Part shown: positions 55,691 through 62,571 of the stretch, piece by piece | Position numbering within the stretch: the first letter of the stretch is position 1 | Layout: the number at the start of each line of letters is the position of its first letter | DNA from: Pontibacter vulgaris | Lineage (GTDB): Bacteria; Bacteroidota; Bacteroidia; Cytophagales; Hymenobacteraceae | DNA length: 64,000 nucleotides | Assembly (NCBI RefSeq): GCF_022758145.1 | Contig: NZ_JAJVDH010000003.1 | Span: forward strand, 310,001-374,000 | Reading direction: 5' to 3' | Notes under the pieces: generated by a model | Seen by the model: the letters and a program-made list of their open reading frames with translations, nothing else | Databases searched by the model: none | Told to the model about the DNA's origin: nothing | Translations under genes and position numbers: made by a program

Positions 55691-57169
55691 TTATACTTTG
55701 GCTTCAGCTTTTTCCAAGGCCTCCTGCGCCAGCCTTTTCCGGATTACGCTGTTTTTGCGGCCATACGCCAGGTATATCACAACACCTAGCGCCATCCATA
55801 CAAACAAGCGCAACCATGTTTCCCAAGGCAGAAACGCCATCATACCCAAGCAAATTAAAATACCAAGTATAGGCACCAGCGGCACCAGCGGAGTTTTAAA
55901 ACTGCGGGGTAATTCAGGGTTTGTTTTACGAAGTATAATAACCCCGGCGCATACCATGGCAAAGGCCAACAGCGTACCAATGCTCGTCATTTCGCCAACT
56001 ACACGTATAGGCACCAGGGCTGCAAACAAACTTATAAAGCCGCAAAGTATAAGGTTCGATTTCCAGGGAGTGCGGAATTTTGGGTGAATCTCTGCAAAAA
56101 TCTTTGGCAGCAAACCGTCTTTAGACATGGAGTAAAATACCCGCGACTGCCCCAACAGATCGACCATGATAACGGAAGTATAACCGATAAGTATGGCCAT
56201 GATGATAAGCTGCGGCAACCAGGTATAAGGCGTGTTTTCGATGGCAACCGCAACTGGCGCAGCCGTATTCTGAAAAGCTGTGTAGGGTGCAAGACCCGTC
56301 ATAACGTGGGCAAACAACACGAACAGCACCGTGCAAAGCGCCAGCGAGCCAAGTATACCAATAGGCATGTTGCGCTGCGGATTCTTGGTTTCCTGCGCAG
56401 CCGTAGACACAATATCAAACCCAAGGAAAACGAAGAACACAACGCCCGCTCCCCTGATAATACCACTCCAGCCAAACTCGCCGAACGTACCAGTATTTTC
56501 CGGAATGTAAGGCTGATAGTTTGCAGGATCTATGTAGTTCCAGCCAAGTATAATGAACACCAGTACTACCAGCACTTTAAGCGATACCACAATAGCATTG
56601 AAGATAGCCGACTCTTTTGTGCCACGCATCAGCACCAGCGTCATGAGTATGATTACCAGAGTGGCAGGAAGGTTGAACAGGCCGTTTACAATGGTACCAT
56701 CAGCCAGTGTTATAGTTTCGAAAGGTGAGCGGGTGAGTTGTGGTGGCAAGTATAAGCCATAGTTTGCCAGGAACCTGGTCAGGTAATCGCTCCAGCTGAT
56801 GGCAACAGTAGCAGCGCCTACTGAAAACTCCAGAATCAGATCCCAGCCAATAATCCAGGCTACCCATTCGCCCAAGGTGGCATACGAGTAAGTATAAGCG
56901 CTACCTGCCACCGGTATCATAGAGGCAAATTCGGCGTAGCACAAGCCGGCAAAAGCACAGCCAGCGGCAGCTACTACAAATGAGAGTGTTACAGCTGGCC
57001 CGGCATTATTGGCAGCGGCTATACCTGTAAGCGAGAAAAGCCCGGCCCCGATGATCACACCCAGCCCCAGCATGATGAGCTGAAAGCCACTGAGCGAGCG
57101 TTTTAAAGTTCCTTCGCCTTGCTCGTTCGCATCCTGAACAAGCCACGCGATCGGTTTCTTGAATTGCAT
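55691..57169 (-). CDS. APC-family amino acid permease under SAM riboswitch control
   Basis: A 492-residue secondary transporter with about twelve to fourteen membrane spans. The APC signature is visible as GLGVIIGAGLFSLTGIAAANNAGPAVTLSF (about 35-64, quoted in part) and the loop GLCYAEFASMIPVAGSAYTY. It resembles cationic amino acid transporters (YfnA/CAT type). A SAM-I riboswitch lies upstream on the same strand, so the likely substrate is methionine or a sulfur amino acid precursor. A single gene unit. Confidence 0.9.
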   Translation of the reverse strand: MQFKKPIAWLVQDANEQGEGTLKRSLSGFQLIMLGLGVIIGAGLFSLTGIAAANNAGPAVTLSFVVAAAGCAFAGLCYAEFASMIPVAGSAYTYSYATLGEWVAWIIGWDLILEFSVGAATVAISWSDYLTRFLANYGLYLPPQLTRSPFETITLADGTIVNGLFNLPATLVIILMTLVLMRGTKESAIFNAIVVSLKVLVVLVFIILGWNYIDPANYQPYIPENTGTFGEFGWSGIIRGAGVVFFVFLGFDIVSTAAQETKNPQRNMPIGILGSLALCTVLFVLFAHVMTGLAPYTAFQNTAAPVAVAIENTPYTWLPQLIIMAILIGYTSVIMVDLLGQSRVFYSMSKDGLLPKIFAEIHPKFRTPWKSNLILCGFISLFAALVPIRVVGEMTSIGTLLAFAMVCAGVIILRKTNPELPRSFKTPLVPLVPILGILICLGMMAFLPWETWLRLFVWMALGVVIYLAYGRKNSVIRKRLAQEALEKAEAKV

Positions 57170-57376
57170 TAAAGTAATATTTAAAATTATTAGAGATAAG
57201 AAAACAAAGCGCTATGCCAGCCAAAACCTACTTTGGGGCACGCACTGGAAAATAATTCGGAATGGATTTATTGCCGGAATCAGCAACAACAGCACATAGC
57301 GGCGGCAGGCGCGGCCATTAACAAGGTGCTATCAGATATAAAAGCGGAAAATTGTTGCTGTAAGTACATCGCAAAA

Positions 57377-57490
57377 GTTTATATGTCCCAAAACTGGGCA
57401 GGAGTTAGCACCTTGCAGCATCAGCTGGTGGTTGCTAGAGGTTCGCGGAGCCTGCTCTCTTCCCTCTTCTTTATAAATCTTGATAAAGAT
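57377..57490 (-). ncRNA. SAM-I riboswitch (S-box) leader of the APC permease gene
   Basis: On the minus strand: CTTTATCAAGATTT (P1/P2 start), GAGGGAAGAGAGCAGGCTC, CGAACCTCTAGCAACC, then GGTGCTAACTCCTGCC, a small CCCA...TGGG hairpin (P4) and ATAAA closing P1. These are the conserved SAM-I blocks in the right order and spacing (about 114 nt). It starts a few nt after a well-formed promoter and ends about 207 nt before the permease ATG. Methionine sufficiency would repress the permease. Confidence 0.8.
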
Positions 57491-57494
57491 GCCA

Positions 57495-57527
57495 CAAAGG
57501 TAAGAGCACCTTCTTTACTTTTGCAAA
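57495..57527 (-). promoter_or_regulatory. Promoter of the SAM riboswitch-permease unit
   Basis: Minus-strand -33 TTTG (57524-57527) and -7 TACCTTTG (57495-57502) with a 21-bp spacer, the arrangement known for Bacteroidota sigma-70. Transcription would begin at the riboswitch 5' end. Confidence 0.65.
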
Positions 57528-57651
57528 TTTTTTATTTTCCTGATTAAAAATCAGCCCTCCTCCGAGGCTAAAGCATAGGGAGCTTACACAAACTTTACCT
57601 ATTTTTGTAGACCTTTACAGGCAGTACACAAAACAGTAGTATAGAAGAGGC

Positions 57652-58059
57652 ATGAAAGTAACTTTACACAAAGGCGAAACAATAAAAGAGGCTATTAAAA
57701 CGAGTGGCATAGCAGTAGGCATTGTAGCCGAAAAATTAGGAATCAGCAGAAAAACGCTTTATAATAAGTTTAAAGAAACCAGCATCCCTTCCAGTTTTAT
57801 ACTTAAGGTAGGTGAAGTTATTCACCACGATTTCTCACAGGAGTTTCCACATCTGAGTAAAAACATTAAGAAAGAAACTGCTGCCACTTTGCCGCAGAAC
57901 GCTAACCTGATGTTGCCGTTTGATGGTGAGCCGCAGCCGGCGTACAAACCAACTAATAATCAGAAGGACCTGGAAACCGAACTGGTAAACCTGCAGCGCA
58001 AATACATAGCCCTGCTGGAAAAATTTAATGAACTGCTGCTGAAAACGAACCAGAATTAA
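57652..58059 (+). CDS. Helix-turn-helix protein with C-terminal coiled coil
   Basis: A 135-residue protein. An N-terminal HTH (about 8-45) has GIAVGIVAEKLGISRKTLYNKF, a Fis/TetR-like recognition helix, followed by a Pro/Gln-rich linker and a C-terminal coiled coil (about 100-133, DLETELVNLQRKYIALLEKFNELLL) for dimerisation. Its target is unknown; it is transcribed alone, divergent from the permease leader. Confidence 0.78.
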   Translation: MKVTLHKGETIKEAIKTSGIAVGIVAEKLGISRKTLYNKFKETSIPSSFILKVGEVIHHDFSQEFPHLSKNIKKETAATLPQNANLMLPFDGEPQPAYKPTNNQKDLETELVNLQRKYIALLEKFNELLLKTNQN

Positions 58060-58079
58060 AGTATAAACCCACATACTTT

Positions 58080-58125
58080 AAAGCCTGAGATCATCCCCTA
58101 AAGTATGATCTCAGGCTTTTTTATT
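58080..58125. terminator. Bidirectional terminator
   Basis: AAAGCCTGAGATCAT (58080-58094) pairs perfectly with ATGATCTCAGGCTTT (58105-58119), then TTTTT, between the convergent HTH and META-domain genes. Confidence 0.85.
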
Positions 58126-58132
58126 TCAAACG

Positions 58133-58588
58133 CTATCGGTTTGTTTCGATACTGACATCGTCGGGGTTGCCGGACTGGAAGGTTGCAACAGCTTGTCCGT
58201 CTGCATACAGGGTAAGCAATTTATCGGCGATTTTATAACTATCAATCCGTTGGAGCAAGCCCAGCATTTTGTTTTCCTGCTCTATATTTGGGCACATCAT
58301 TCTGGTTGAGCCAATACCTGATAGGCGAAGCGTAGTGCCCTGCACAGTGTACTTCCCAAAAAAGTTATTACAGCCTGTGTAACCTTTCACCTCCCCTTTG
58401 CCTTCCTCGAACCGGATGTACGCCATGCGTGTATCTTTTGCAGTCTGCACGTCCTGCCCCTCCAACGACAATAATACCCAGTAAGAGCCTCCAATAGATG
58501 ATTGCTCGCCGGCAACGGTTGTTGTTTTGATAGTACAGGCACTGAAAAACAGGCAAAGTATTGTAAAAGCAAGTGCTGTATATTTCAT
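58133..58588 (-). CDS. META-domain (HslJ-like) lipoprotein
   Basis: A 151-residue lipoprotein with lipobox LFFSAC (Cys about 18) and a META domain: SYWVLLSLEGQ, YIRFEEGKGEVKGYTGCNNFFGKY, and RMMCPNIEQENKML. META/HslJ proteins are heat- or stress-associated envelope proteins. A longer frame from an ATG at 58720 would put a non-signal stretch before the lipoprotein signal, so 58588 is preferred. Confidence 0.88.
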   Translation of the reverse strand: MKYTALAFTILCLFFSACTIKTTTVAGEQSSIGGSYWVLLSLEGQDVQTAKDTRMAYIRFEEGKGEVKGYTGCNNFFGKYTVQGTTLRLSGIGSTRMMCPNIEQENKMLGLLQRIDSYKIADKLLTLYADGQAVATFQSGNPDDVSIETNR

Positions 58589-58700
58589 AGTTTCAGGAGT
58601 TTGGTTACGGTTTTGTGTAATTATACTTGCATACGTCTTTATGCTATTCAGGTATGGAACGAACAAAAGATTGGTTTTGCATTGGAAGTATAAAACAGAA

Positions 58701-58728
58701 AAAGCCTGCTGAATTACCAACAGGCTTT
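58701..58728 (-). terminator. Terminator of the disordered-protein gene
   Basis: AAAGCCTG (58701-58708) pairs with CAGGCTTT (58721-58728), followed on the minus strand by TTCTGTTTT. Confidence 0.65.
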
Positions 58729-58749
58729 CTGGTTTATACTTGCAGGCTG

Positions 58750-59673
58750 TTACCCTCGCATGTCGCTTTGGCCATAGTTGCTGATCGGGGAATGCTTGGA
58801 ATAATCTGGACCTGAACGCTGGCTTCTTTCGGAGTTACTGCGGCTCGGGAATTCATCGCTGCGGCGGTCGAACTGGCCTCTCTCACGGCTCTGGTCTGAT
58901 AAGTAAGCTCTGTTTGAGCTGTAACTGCCGGTTCCGTAATTATCGCTGCCCTGGTAACGGCGGCTGCTTCCATAGCCATCGTAGCCTTCGTTCTGGTAAC
59001 GCGATTGCTGACGGCCATAGTCGTTTTCGCTTTTGCTGCGGCCTGCATCAGATCGGTCGAAGTAACGGTCATCCAGGTTCTCGCTGTACTGCGATGTACG
59101 CTGGCCGCGGCTACCCCTGTCGTGCCCGTAATTATGCCGTTCGTCACGGCCAAACTCTGTAAATCTTCTGCCCTGTCCACCGGTACGGTAGCTGTTTTCC
59201 TGGCGTGCGTAATGGTCGGTTTCGCTGTAGTCAGGCTGGTTAAGGCCATAGTTTCCGCTGTTCATATAATCATCGCGTTCGCTGCGCCAGCCAGTGCCTC
59301 TGGTTCTGTCATAGCCGCCGTTGCGGTCGTAGTTCATGTATGGGTTAGGGTCGCCGTAGTGGTAATGGTCCTGGCGGTTTCTGTCCTGGTCGTAGTTGCT
59401 CTGGCCGCTTCTGTAGCTGCGGCCACCTCCCTGGCCTGCCATTGGTCCCATTGTGCCTTCATTAAAATCGCTGCGCTGCGTGCTTCTCACATCCCGATGC
59501 ATCTCTTCGTGGTGCGGCATGCCAAAATAATTTCCTCTCTCCGTATAGCGGGTCAGATGGCTCGATAAATCATTCTGTTCTCTACCACGGTGCTCACCAC
59601 GGTGTTCCTGGCCAAAATGTTCGTTGTCGCGTTCGTAATAACCGGTACCAAAATTTCTCTCAAATCTCTCCAT
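58750..59673 (-). CDS. Arg/Gly/Tyr/Asp/Ser-rich intrinsically disordered protein
   Basis: A 307-residue protein that is almost entirely low complexity: arginine, glycine, tyrosine, aspartate, serine, asparagine and glutamine dominate, with only two lysines, no cysteine and very few hydrophobic residues. Short patterns such as YDRNGGYDR, GQGRRF and RGSRGQR recur irregularly, giving alternating charge and many aromatic-arginine pairs. No domain recognised. It reads as a soluble, disordered, nucleic-acid- or condensate-type protein. An ATG at 59748 would add a hydrophobic leader from the promoter region, so 59673 (MERFERNFGTG) is chosen. The opposite strand also has long open frames, an effect of the skewed composition. 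Confidence 0.75.
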   Translation of the reverse strand: MERFERNFGTGYYERDNEHFGQEHRGEHRGREQNDLSSHLTRYTERGNYFGMPHHEEMHRDVRSTQRSDFNEGTMGPMAGQGGGRSYRSGQSNYDQDRNRQDHYHYGDPNPYMNYDRNGGYDRTRGTGWRSERDDYMNSGNYGLNQPDYSETDHYARQENSYRTGGQGRRFTEFGRDERHNYGHDRGSRGQRTSQYSENLDDRYFDRSDAGRSKSENDYGRQQSRYQNEGYDGYGSSRRYQGSDNYGTGSYSSNRAYLSDQSRERGQFDRRSDEFPSRSNSERSQRSGPDYSKHSPISNYGQSDMRG

Positions 59674-59796
59674 AGTTGTGGTTTTTAAATTGATAATCAC
59701 TCTGACTAATAAACGAATGAACGCCGCGAGTGTTAGCGCTACCACCAAAATGAACGAGAATTAACAGGTATATACCGGCTTATCGTACCTGCAGGT

Positions 59797-60492
59797 TTAT
59801 ACTTGCGCAGTACTTATTTCTGCAGCAGTTTGTGTTATACTATAGTTGTTAAAAGTGATGGTGTCTGAAGTTTTTCCTTCGAGTAAAACTTTAATAGGGC
59901 GCGCCATTGCCCTGTTTTGGGTCGGGAACCAGGGGCGCTGCTCCTGCACCACAATAAACATTCCGGTTGCATCGCCTACGGCTCCAAAAGTAGCGTTTCC
60001 AGTTTTCCATTGTTGTAGTTGCAAACGGGCTTTGAGTTCTTTTGTGAACGTTTGCACATCGGGCACAGGCAAACCAACTTCGGCAATATCCAGCACGGCA
60101 TCGGCGCTGAAGGCGGCTTCGGATCCGGGCGAACTTTGATGTGAAATCAGTTCCAGAATGTTAAAGTCAGTATCGTAGAAGTATAAAGCATGGGCTCCCC
60201 ATTCCTGGTGGTGCACAACCGGCGTACCACTGCCTGATTCGTACAGAAAGGCAGCTCTGTCGTTCAGCCAGATACGGGCTTCTTCGATCTTATCTGCAGG
60301 TATATTAAATGCAAAATGATAGGGACCTGGCGGTGCCCAGGAAGTATACTTAAAGCAAAGGCGCGAGCTCCCTGCTTTTACACAAAATTGTTTCTCATCC
60401 TCTGAAAGCAAAGCAAATCCAAGCACATTTGTATAAAATTGTTTCGTACCGGCTAAGTCGTTGGTTTCCAGTTCAAGTTCCTGTATTTTCAT
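59797..60492 (-). CDS. VOC-family (glyoxalase/bleomycin-resistance fold) protein
   Basis: A 231-residue protein with two glyoxalase-fold modules. The first (about 1-120) begins KIQELELETNDLAGTKQFYTNVLGF and ends GAHALYFYDTDFNILELI, the classic metal-binding barrel pattern. The second (about 130-230) is more diverged (VGLPVPDVQTFTKELKARL). Enzymatic role unknown; could be dioxygenase, isomerase or drug-binding. Confidence 0.85.
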   Translation of the reverse strand: MKIQELELETNDLAGTKQFYTNVLGFALLSEDEKQFCVKAGSSRLCFKYTSWAPPGPYHFAFNIPADKIEEARIWLNDRAAFLYESGSGTPVVHHQEWGAHALYFYDTDFNILELISHQSSPGSEAAFSADAVLDIAEVGLPVPDVQTFTKELKARLQLQQWKTGNATFGAVGDATGMFIVVQEQRPWFPTQNRAMARPIKVLLEGKTSDTITFNNYSITQTAAEISTAQV

Positions 60493-60771
60493 AGTTTAGG
60501 GTTAAGTGGTTTGTATAAGAAAGATACTACATTGGCAGGTTTACGGCTATTGCTAAAGCTATATTTTTCGATACTTTTTACTAGGCAAGCAAACCGGATC
60601 TGTTTCTGAAACGCTGGACTGAAATTATATCCTGTTTAACCCCTTTCTAAAAATCAGCTATTAAATCATCAGTGCAACTCTTACGTCGAGTTATTGAGGC
60701 TGTTCATCTATTTCTTACGGTTAAACAAACTGCATTTTATACTTTAGTAACTCTAACTCATAAATTAAACT
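60493..60771. other. Divergent intergenic region
   Basis: Promoter region between the VOC and M61 peptidase genes. No repeat or RNA seen. Confidence 0.4.
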
Positions 60772-62571
60772 ATGAAAAAAATTACTGTTGCCCTTGGCCT
60801 GTTTGCTGCACTCGCTTTTAGCCCCGCCGCTATGGCCGCTAAAAACCCTGAGCTAACGTACCAGGTAAACCTGAACGACCGTACCGACGATCGTTTCAAA
60901 GTAACACTGAATGTAAAAGGCCTGAAAGCCGACAATAACATTTACCAGTTTGCATCTACCGCACCCGGCACTTACCAGACCATGGATATCGGCCGCTTTG
61001 TAAGTGCGTTTAAAGCATTCGATAAAAAAGGCCGCGAGCTGGAAGTGAAGCAGATCAGCACCAACCAGTGGCAGTTAAGCAAGCCAGAGAAAGTACGAAA
61101 AATAACCTACCAGGTAGCCGAAACATGGGATACCAAAGTGGATAAGAACATGATCTACCGCATGTGCGGCACTTCTTTAGAGCAGGACCACGCGCTTATT
61201 AACGGGCAGGGTGTATTCGGTTATGTAAAAGGCCTGCAAGCTGCTCCTTTAAAAGTAAAGCTGGATTACCCGCAGGAATGGCTGATTGGCACCGCCCTTA
61301 AACCAGACACCAAAGGTTATTATACTGCTGATAATTACGACCAGATCGTGGATTCTCCTATACTTCTGGGTAACCTTACAAAAGCAGAAACCAAGTATAA
61401 AGGCACTACCATCGATATTTATACTTACTCTAAAACGGGTATGGTAAAGTCTGAGGACCTGATGGCCAACATGACTGCCATGCTGGGCGCCGCCAATGCC
61501 TTCGTAGTAAATTTCCCGGTAGACCGTTATACTTTCCTATACCATTTTGAAGACCAGGATTGGGGAGCATGGGAACATTCGTACAGCTCAGAGTATGTTT
61601 TTAAAGAAGCTCCGCTTACGCCTGAGTTTGCCAGCCGCATCACTGATGTTGCCGCGCACGAATTCTTTCACATTATCACCCCTCTCAACATCCATTCTGA
61701 GATCATAGAGCGCTTTAACTTCGAAACGCCAACTCCGTCGCAGCACCTTTGGCTGTATGAGGGCACAACCGAATGGGCTTCGGATATGATGCAGCTGCGT
61801 GGCCGCTTAATTGATCTGCCAACCTACCTCGGCGACCTGCGTGAAAAACTATACTTCGACGACCGCATGGACAAGAACTATAGCCTCCAAAAGCTCTCTT
61901 TAACTTCTTACACCCCTGAGGGCCAGAAGCAATATGGCAACATTTATAACCGCGGAGCACTAACTGCTGCATTACTTGATATCCGTTTGCTCGAATTATC
62001 GGGTGGTAAGCGTGGCCTGCGCGAGGTTATAAATGAGCTATCAAAAGAGTATGGCCCTAAAAAGGCTTTCCCTGAAAATAAATTCTTCGACCTTTTTACC
62101 GCTAAAACCTACCCTGAGATTGGCGACTTCTTTAACCGCTATGTAAAAAATGCGGAGCCGCTTCCTGTAGAAGAATATTATGGCAAACTGGGCATCTCTT
62201 ACAAACCATCTGTTAAAACCGGCAAAAAAGTACCGGCTCTGGGCTATGATTTTGGCTTTGAAGATGGCAAACTGATGTTCACTAAAGTAAGTGATGAAAT
62301 ACTAAAAGCAGGCCTGAAAGACGGTGATGTGCTTGTAGCCAAAGATGGCGTAAACATTACCCTGCAAAATGCACAACAGGAGCTTGGCAAGTTAATGGCC
62401 GCTAAACCAGGCGATACGCATACTTACACTGTGCTGCGTAATGGCAAAGAAGTACAGGTAAAAACTACTGTTCTTGAAAAAGAAGAAGAGAAAAAGCATT
62501 TGTTTGAGATAAACGAACAGGCAACCCCGCAACAGCTTGCTCTGCGCAACGCCTGGATGCAGAATTTATAA
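60772..62571 (+). CDS. M61-family glycyl aminopeptidase with PDZ domain
   Basis: A 599-residue exported peptidase. Signal peptide about 1-22 (ending AMAA), an N-terminal beta domain, the M61 catalytic domain with zinc motif VAAHEFFHIITP (HExxH about 296-300) and LWLYEGTTEWA (third ligand), then a PDZ domain (about 490-575, LKDGDVLVAKDG) for protein or peptide binding. It acts in the periplasm on Gly- or Ala-starting peptides in known members. A perfect-stem terminator follows. Confidence 0.92.
   Translation: MKKITVALGLFAALAFSPAAMAAKNPELTYQVNLNDRTDDRFKVTLNVKGLKADNNIYQFASTAPGTYQTMDIGRFVSAFKAFDKKGRELEVKQISTNQWQLSKPEKVRKITYQVAETWDTKVDKNMIYRMCGTSLEQDHALINGQGVFGYVKGLQAAPLKVKLDYPQEWLIGTALKPDTKGYYTADNYDQIVDSPILLGNLTKAETKYKGTTIDIYTYSKTGMVKSEDLMANMTAMLGAANAFVVNFPVDRYTFLYHFEDQDWGAWEHSYSSEYVFKEAPLTPEFASRITDVAAHEFFHIITPLNIHSEIIERFNFETPTPSQHLWLYEGTTEWASDMMQLRGRLIDLPTYLGDLREKLYFDDRMDKNYSLQKLSLTSYTPEGQKQYGNIYNRGALTAALLDIRLLELSGGKRGLREVINELSKEYGPKKAFPENKFFDLFTAKTYPEIGDFFNRYVKNAEPLPVEEYYGKLGISYKPSVKTGKKVPALGYDFGFEDGKLMFTKVSDEILKAGLKDGDVLVAKDGVNITLQNAQQELGKLMAAKPGDTHTYTVLRNGKEVQVKTTVLEKEEEKKHLFEINEQATPQQLALRNAWMQNL

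What the first reader, a model, noticed from the sequence alone, without database searches (positions are those of the whole stretch)
58750..59673. Arginine/tyrosine/glycine-rich disordered protein, condensate-like in composition
The protein is nearly devoid of hydrophobic residues and lysine, rich in Arg-Gly and Tyr-Asp pairs, and has no domain. Sequences of this kind in eukaryotes drive phase separation with RNA. A bacterial example of over 300 residues is uncommon and, to my knowledge, not characterised in this group.
Basis: partly seen in the sequence, partly recalled or inferred. Interest (0 to 1): 0.55.

Follow-up and report, generated by a model that had tools for sequence, protein, structure and literature searches.

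The report
Stress-promoter disordered protein in Pontibacter
The bacterium Pontibacter carries a shapeless, arginine- and tyrosine-rich protein that evolution has kept across the genus behind a stress-type gene switch, so it is probably a protective protein that may thicken or condense the cell interior under drying or oxidative stress.

Summary
The ORF is real: minus strand, 59673 to 58750, 307 aa, GRAVY -1.96, no recognised domain. Substitution patterns show a selected protein (dN/dS 0.06-0.19 in the 14 closest orthologue pairs). All 50 genomes of its genus (Pontibacter) listed in a family sample have it; no other genus has a significant match. AlphaFold2 on 38 orthologues gives mean pLDDT 44 and no secondary structure. 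The orthologues keep near-zero net charge, arginine instead of lysine, no cysteine, evenly spaced aromatics and five short motifs. The new result is the promoter: AAC-N16-CGTT lies 37-48 bp before the ATG in 38 of 38 orthologues. The same element precedes the genus's DJ-1/PfpI gene (28 of 30; N17 in the other 2) and catalase (9+1 of 15), but 9 of 687 ORFs of this genome and 2 of 165 neighbouring gene-locus pairs. It resembles the alphaproteobacterial EcfG general-stress promoter without its GG. It has no genome-wide excess, so the regulon is small or ill-defined. The protein is most likely a stress-induced, hydrophilin-like disordered protectant that may self-associate. Condensation itself is untested.

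The parts
58750..59673 (-). Gene for the 307-aa Arg/Tyr/Gly/Ser-rich disordered protein (ATG at 59673, stop 58752-58750)
   Evidence: orthologues in the Pontibacter genomes listed; dN/dS 0.06-0.19; AlphaFold2 pLDDT 43.9
59710..59734 (-). Promoter-like element AAC-N16-CGTTTA (AACACTCGCGGCGTTCATTCGTTTA); CGTT begins 42 bp before the ATG
   Evidence: AAC-N16-CGTT found in 38 of 38 orthologues when sought 25-70 bp before the ATG, always at 37-48 bp
59515..59538 (-). Conserved motif 1, residues 46-53, RGNYFGMP (consensus RGNYYGMP)
59329..59370 (-). Conserved motif 2, residues 102-115, DHYHYGDPNPYMNY
59185..59211 (-). Conserved motif 3, residues 155-163, YARQENSYR
59161..59181 (-). Conserved motif 4, residues 165-171, GGQGRRF
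58795..58821 (-). Conserved motif 5, residues 285-293, QRSGPDYSK (S287 G288 P289 invariant)
58699..58730 (-). Intrinsic-terminator-like hairpin (14 pairs, T-rich tail) 19 bp after the stop codon, between this gene and the META gene
   Evidence: 5 such sites in the scanned region, 4.1 expected from shuffles; a terminator-like hairpin between the two genes in 32 of 38 loci by my own looser scan
58133..58588 (-). META-domain gene with a lipobox-like N-terminus (lipobox recognised by eye): conserved downstream neighbour, probably separately transcribed
   Evidence: Pfam META 7e-26; same strand, within 1.5 kb, 38 of 38 loci, start 32-161 bp after the stop; AAC-N16-CGTT before it in 1 of 37 loci

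Best explanation
The gene makes a cytoplasmic, fully disordered, net-neutral polyampholyte that belongs to a stress regulon of Pontibacter. Under stress (oxidative stress, drying and radiation are the likely signals) an alternative, ECF-type sigma factor transcribes it from an AAC-N16-CGTT promoter, together with the DJ-1/PfpI stress protein and, in some species, catalase. The protein accumulates as a hydrophilin-like protectant. Its mixed charges keep it soluble and hydrated, and its evenly spaced Tyr and Arg residues give weak reversible contacts with itself and with clients, so that on crowding or drying it thickens into a condensate or gel that shields macromolecules. Shown by computation here: coding selection, predicted disorder, conservation, the promoter-like element and its sharing with stress genes. 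Inferred: the sigma factor, induction, protection, cytoplasmic location. Plausible but untested: condensation.
For: Orthologues in the 50 genus-g1 genomes listed, and no significant match outside the genus in a 150-genome family sample. Purifying selection. Disorder: AlphaFold2 pLDDT 43.9 with a 38-row alignment. Gly 13 % and GRAVY -1.96 against the hydrophilin criteria Gly>6 % and GRAVY<-1 (PMC4190154 passages). AAC-N16-CGTT at 37-48 bp before the ATG in 38 of 38; in an automated count with guessed starts, 34 of 36. Positions not used to select the sites are conserved too: 1.82 and 1.70 bits for two of the bases after CGTT, 0.66 mean in the spacer, 0.11 in the upstream flank. The same element 41-52 bp before the DJ-1/PfpI gene in 28 of 30 loci, and N17 in the other 2 (PF01965), and before catalase in 9 of 15 loci plus 1 with N17 (PF00199). 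Negative controls: 9 of 687 ORFs in this genome, this gene among the 9, and 2 of 165 gene-locus pairs over nine neighbouring genes. EcfG general-stress promoters are GGAAC-N16-CGTT with AAC nearly invariant (PMC7083833 passages). Sticker grammar: aromatics evenly spaced in 37 of 38, R/(R+K)>=0.83 in 38 of 38. Neutrality maintained: positive and negative fractions covary, r=0.73, and 0 of 10,000 permutations have as small a spread. P. korlensis catalases rise strongly after gamma radiation (PMC4460873 passages).
Against: No expression data were available. The GG of the EcfG -35 is absent. The element is not in excess genome-wide: 54 places against 96 for the reversed control in this genome. A stricter form has 39 places in 41 genomes against 42 control places; by coordinates 27 of the 39 are this gene's promoter, and 10 of the 41 genomes have no place of that form. 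So any regulon is small or loosely defined, and no sigma factor was identified. The one ECF-like gene looked at lacks the element. Five of 15 catalase genes lack it. Mean hydrophilicity is 0.58, below the >1 criterion. Codon usage does not mark the gene as highly expressed: rank 144 of 702. The orthologues are related, so shuffles and permutations overstate significance. The motifs are conserved more than a pure space-filler would need.
Confidence: 0.6

Rival explanations
1. Soluble hydrophilin without condensation: it protects by hydration, crowding and weak chaperoning, and the Tyr/Arg bias is incidental. (This overlaps with the best explanation and differs in the last step.)
For: Very low GRAVY, net charge near zero, charges better mixed than shuffles (mean z -1.65), which disfavours strong electrostatic self-association; stress-type promoter.
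Against: Tyr conservation (mean 0.60) is the highest of the abundant residues and Arg is next (0.47), while Glu (0.22), Gln (0.14) and Thr (0.21) drift. Classical hydrophilins are not, to my recollection, Tyr/Arg-rich. Mean hydrophilicity is below 1.
Confidence: 0.3
2. RNA-driven condensate protein: it binds RNA through Arg-Gly and forms granules with it.
For: Arg 14.7 %, Gly 13 %, Tyr 9.4 %; Arg over Lys in 38 of 38.
Against: Net charge -3.0 to +0.8 % over 38 of 38; no RGG in the window protein, RG at about chance; no RNA-binding domain.
Confidence: 0.12
3. Disordered scaffold or adaptor: the five short motifs dock one or a few folded partners and the rest is linker.
For: Twelve of the fifteen invariant columns lie in five short blocks between linkers of variable length; a META-domain gene is adjacent in 38 of 38 loci.
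Against: The whole protein keeps its composition and net neutrality. META is probably transcribed apart by the terminator and promoter evidence, looks exported while this protein has no signal sequence (both by eye), and occurs without it in other genera (9 loci).
Confidence: 0.2
4. Spurious or untranslated frame (other frames here are open too).
For: Overlapping ORFs of 187 and 82 aa on the plus strand and 171 aa in another frame of the minus strand.
Against: Substitution pattern 308/238/1109 over codon positions and dN/dS 0.06-0.19 in this frame; aligned start Met in 38 of 38 (starts were partly chosen by rule).
Confidence: 0.01

Closest known systems
Hydrophilins / LEA-like stress proteins (definition read in PMC4190154 passages)
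   Same: Gly >6 %, GRAVY < -1, disordered, stress-type promoter
   Different: Mean hydrophilicity 0.58 instead of >1; Tyr/Arg-rich with almost no Lys; no LEA Pfam domain; conserved Tyr motifs
Tyr/Arg sticker proteins of eukaryotic condensates (FET-type low-complexity domains; from general knowledge and the abstract start of PMC12677899 seen in the listing)
   Same: Tyr and Arg rich, Gly/Ser/Asn spacers, evenly spaced aromatics
   Different: 16 % Asp+Glu, so net neutral; no RGG; no RNA-binding domain; no homologue among PDB sequences; condensation untested
EcfG/PhyR general stress response promoters of Alphaproteobacteria (PMC7083833 passages)
   Same: AAC, N16 spacer, CGTT; the promoter of stress-protein genes
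   Different: No GG before AAC; different phylum; sigma factor not identified; EcfG is stated to be exclusive to Alphaproteobacteria (PMC3892343 abstract start)
Second Gly/Ser/Tyr-rich protein of the same genome (G000:C3:132406-133824)
   Same: Low-complexity, nearly Lys-free, AAC-N16-CGTTTA upstream
   Different: 59 % Gly+Ser, 473 aa, neither finds the other in the genome at E<=10

Membership tests
Hydrophilin | Gly content above 6 % | tested here: met
   13.0 % in the window protein; 10.0-15.3 % over 38 of 38
Hydrophilin | GRAVY below -1 | tested here: met
   -1.96; -2.38 to -1.86 over 38 of 38
   0.58; 0.42-0.80 over 38 of 38. The hydrophilin pool in PMC4190154 spans -0.3 to 1. So 'hydrophilin-like', not filed as a hydrophilin
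Hydrophilin | Induced by and protective against osmotic stress or drying | not testable with these tools
   Only promoter evidence
LEA protein families | Match to a LEA Pfam domain | tested here: not met
   0 Pfam families at E<=1
RGG-type RNA-binding condensate protein | RGG boxes and positive net charge | tested here: not met
   0 RGG in the window protein; net charge -3.0 to +0.8 % over 38 of 38
Sticker-spacer condensate protein | Disordered, evenly spaced aromatic stickers | tested here: met
   pLDDT 43.9; aromatic gap variance below the shuffle mean in 37 of 38, mean z -1.53
Sticker-spacer condensate protein | Phase separates at physiological conditions | not testable with these tools
   No predictor or assay available
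EcfG-type general stress promoter | AAC, 16-bp spacer, CGTT | tested here: met
   38 of 38
EcfG-type general stress promoter | GG before AAC in the -35 box | tested here: not met
   The base before AAC is A 17, C 12, T 6, G 3; the one before that is C 23, T 9, A 4, G 2 (38 rows, one of them, L054, taken at a wrong site)
EcfG-type general stress promoter | Recognised by EcfG with PhyR/NepR control | not tested
   No search for the sigma factor family or PhyR was made

The most novel reading that the evidence does not exclude
Pontibacter has a stress-sigma regulon, built on an EcfG-like promoter in a phylum not known for EcfG, one of whose outputs is a dedicated net-neutral Tyr/Arg sticker protein (perhaps with a second, Gly/Ser/Tyr-rich one) that turns the cytoplasm into a protective condensate or gel during drying and oxidative stress: a bacterial counterpart of stress-granule or tardigrade-gel protection.
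Probability: 0.27. Interest if true: 0.75.

Novelty: new variant of a known kind. Interest (0 to 1): 0.55.

Why it matters
Protective disordered proteins described from bacteria are, to my knowledge, few, and condensate grammar is known mostly from eukaryotes. This one is long, free of any recognised domain, under strong selection and genus-wide, with a promoter that ties it to stress genes. That makes a direct test possible: whether a net-neutral Tyr/Arg polyampholyte protects a bacterium by condensing. The promoter also gives a handle on what looks like an undescribed stress regulon in the Bacteroidota.

Tried and rejected
Considered and rejected: untranslated frame (codon evidence); mobile or phage protein (PHROGs 0 of 38; plasmids no match); operon with the META gene (terminator-like hairpin in 32 of 38; META carries the element in 1 of 37; in 6 of 38 no hairpin was seen, so read-through is not excluded there); diverged orthologue beside META in other genera (10 loci fetched; META ORF found in 9 of them, no such ORF beside it); structured RNA at the locus (57000-61000, found only a SAM riboswitch); very high constitutive expression by codon usage (rank 144 of 702).

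Led nowhere: genome-wide count of the promoter element (no excess over the reversed control); its sigma factor (one ECF-like gene noticed by eye, no element upstream; no family search for sigma factors was made); papers on a disordered protein in Pontibacter (5 papers, about curli, amyloid or biofilm matrix by title) or on disordered Arg/Tyr stress proteins in Bacteroidota (2 papers, unrelated by title). Weak profile hits in two genomes of another genus (E 0.18-1.1) were not followed.

Limits: gene starts in my scripts are first-ATG or rule-based guesses, and longest-ORF gene calling was used instead of a gene finder. In one search, 53 of the 54 element places of the genome were examined (the last was fetched but not examined). 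A first DJ-1 count with a motif string reached only 22 of the 30 loci (20 with N16) and was replaced. The catalase count uses only the 15 catalases found by a motif string within the 37 fetched loci. Paper searches list only the best few: one search listed 15 of 70, 10 of 12, 8 of 345, 12 of 122, 8 of 94.

Full report
The thing itself. The finding's coordinates hold one ORF of the described kind, on the minus strand: ATG at 59673, 307 codons, stop at 58752-58750. It is R 14.7, G 13.0, S 11.7, Y 9.4, D 9.1, E 7.2, N 7.2 %, with two lysines, no cysteine and 2.3 % I+L+V. In 864 kb of the same 4.19-Mb genome (window plus forty 20-kb stretches) it has the lowest GRAVY of 702 longest non-overlapping ORFs of at least 100 aa, and is second only to one other low-complexity ORF in lack of aliphatics and lysine. 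It has no Pfam, NCBIfam, PHROGs or PDB-sequence relative at the thresholds used.

Distribution. Record titles of 37 related loci name Pontibacter species, plus Botryobacter ruber (peptide patterns from close relatives, so not exhaustive). In a family sample of 150 genomes, the 50 genomes of the same genus that are listed all have it (E<=4.4e-41); outside the genus two genomes have weak hits (E 0.18-1.1) and no other genome has any at E<=10; 78 rows without a match were not shown. In an order sample of 390 genomes the 18 matching genomes are all of the same genus. It is single-copy in its own genome. Beside META-domain genes of other genera (10 loci, META ORF found in 9) no such ORF was seen.

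It is a selected protein. In the 14 closest orthologue pairs, which share sequences, differences fall 308/238/1109 on codon positions 1/2/3 and dN/dS is 0.06-0.19. At a median pair identity of 44 %, fifteen columns of a 38-row alignment are invariant; twelve of them lie in five blocks: RGNYFGMP, DHYHYGDPNPYMNY, YARQENSYR, GGQGRRF and QRSGPDYSK. Among residues with more than ten occurrences Tyr is the best conserved (mean 0.60), then Arg (0.47); Glu, Gln and Thr drift (0.14-0.22).

It is predicted disordered. AlphaFold2 with 38 orthologues: mean pLDDT 43.9, pTM 0.15, two residues above 70, no helix of 4 or more and no strand of 3 or more residues. FoldIndex is negative in 38 of 38.

Its physics is conserved. 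Net charge is -3.0 to +0.8 % over the 38, although charged residues make up about 31 %. Positive and negative fractions covary (r 0.73), and the spread of net charge is about half that of permuted pairings, 0 of 10,000 as small. Charges are better mixed than shuffles (z -3.01 to -0.54) and aromatics more evenly spaced (z<0 in 37 of 38). Relatedness of the sequences inflates all these statistics. Neutral charge and absence of RGG speak against RNA coacervation; even aromatic stickers with Arg instead of Lys are compatible with self-association, which no tool here could test.

Its promoter. AAC-N16-CGTT, sought 25-70 bp before the ATG, is found in 38 of 38 orthologues, always with CGTT at 37-48 bp. 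Those seven bases are invariant by the way the sites were chosen; the independent signs are the constant distance, the bases after CGTT (1.37, 1.82, 1.00, 1.70 bits) and the spacer (0.66 mean) against 0.11 bits in the upstream flank. With a free choice of spacer 15-17 over 400 bp, 32 of 38 orthologues match all nine bases of AAC/CGTTTA with spacer 16, against 4 of 760 base-shuffled upstreams. In an automated count with guessed starts it is 34 of 36. In 41 Pontibacter genomes the stricter AACRYW-N13-CGTTTATA occurs 39 times, in 31 genomes; compared by hand with the gene coordinates, 27 of the 39 are this gene's promoter. The reversed control occurs 42 times. So the other 12 are no excess, and in the own genome the looser AAC-N16-CGTTWA is not in excess either (54 against 96). 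The regulon evidence is therefore positional and comparative. In the own genome the element precedes, at promoter distance, a DJ-1/PfpI gene, a TerB-domain gene, the other low-complexity gene, an ADH_N-domain gene, an Xre-like-HTH gene and several unclassified ones (53 of 54 places examined). In 864 kb, spacer 16 gives 3 promoter-distance hits of 14 places, against 7 in total over twelve other spacers and 0 of 18 for the reversed pattern, a weak excess alone.

The decisive comparison is across species. The DJ-1/PfpI gene (PF01965) has AAC-N16-CGTT 41-52 bp before its ATG in 28 of 30 loci and AAC-N17-CGTT in the other 2 (30 of the 41 genomes' genes were fetched). The catalase gene (PF00199 in one of them) has it in 9 of 15 loci and N17 in 1, and lacks it in 5; the positive ones may be close relatives. 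Background: 9 of 687 ORFs of this genome, this gene among them; for each of nine neighbouring genes none or one of 10-37 loci, 2 of 165 in all. EcfG general-stress promoters of Alphaproteobacteria are GGAAC-N16-CGTT with the AAC nearly invariant (PMC7083833, passages); here the GG is missing. DJ-1/PfpI and catalase as stress genes rest on general knowledge and, for catalase in this genus, on PMC4460873 (passages), which reports strong catalase induction by gamma radiation in P. korlensis; whether this gene was induced there I could not see.

Neighbourhood. A META-domain gene with a lipobox-like start (by eye) follows on the same strand in 38 of 38 loci, 32-161 bp after the stop, with a terminator-like hairpin between in 32 of 38 (window hairpin 58730-58699, where such hairpins are not above shuffle expectation overall), and it lacks the promoter element in 36 of 37. 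The pair is inherited together but is probably not one operon in most species.

Interpretation. A cytoplasmic (no signal sequence seen by eye), stress-regulated, net-neutral disordered protein that meets two of three hydrophilin criteria (Gly, GRAVY; not mean hydrophilicity; definition in PMC4190154, passages). The most likely role is protection under oxidative or drying stress. The conserved Tyr/Arg pattern makes reversible self-association the preferred mechanism over pure hydration, at moderate confidence. The conserved motifs leave room for a docking role. Codon usage is unremarkable, which neither supports nor excludes an inducible gene.

Known or new. The library searches made (open-licence PMC papers only, lists capped) listed no paper on this protein or on such a regulon in Bacteroidota, judged by titles and abstract starts. 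The kind (stress-induced disordered protectant) is known; the Tyr/Arg net-neutral make-up with conserved motifs and an EcfG-like promoter outside Alphaproteobacteria is, as far as these searches go, a new variant.

Noticed in passing
G000:C3:132406-133824 (-), locus L151:12406-13824: A second low-complexity protein, 473 aa, 31 % Ser, 28 % Gly, 10 % Tyr, with AAC-N16-CGTTTA 52 bp before its ATG. It stands divergently to a cyanophycin-synthase-like gene (PF18921).
   Followed up: partly
L246-L275 (DJ-1/PfpI gene of Pontibacter genomes): An AAC-N16/17-CGTT element before the DJ-1/PfpI gene in 30 of 30 loci fetched points to an undescribed stress regulon in Pontibacter.
   Followed up: yes
window 57376-57479 (-): SAM riboswitch (RF00162, 68 bits) upstream of an amino-acid permease gene at 55691-57169 (-), perhaps a methionine-related transporter.
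   Followed up: no
window 57652-58059 (+): 135-aa protein with a Fis/HTH_8-type helix-turn-helix, convergent to the META gene; 21 matching ORFs in the 37 Pontibacter loci.
   Followed up: no
G000:C2 about 490887-491478 (+), locus L279: An ECF-like sigma factor gene followed by a short ORF, near the EF-Tu/ribosomal gene cluster (recognised by eye); no AAC-N16-CGTT in the 300 bp upstream.
   Followed up: partly
G000:C3:496585-496609 (-), locus L218: The AAC-N16-CGTTAA element 35 bp before a TerB-domain gene (PF05099), a further candidate of the stress regulon.
   Followed up: partly
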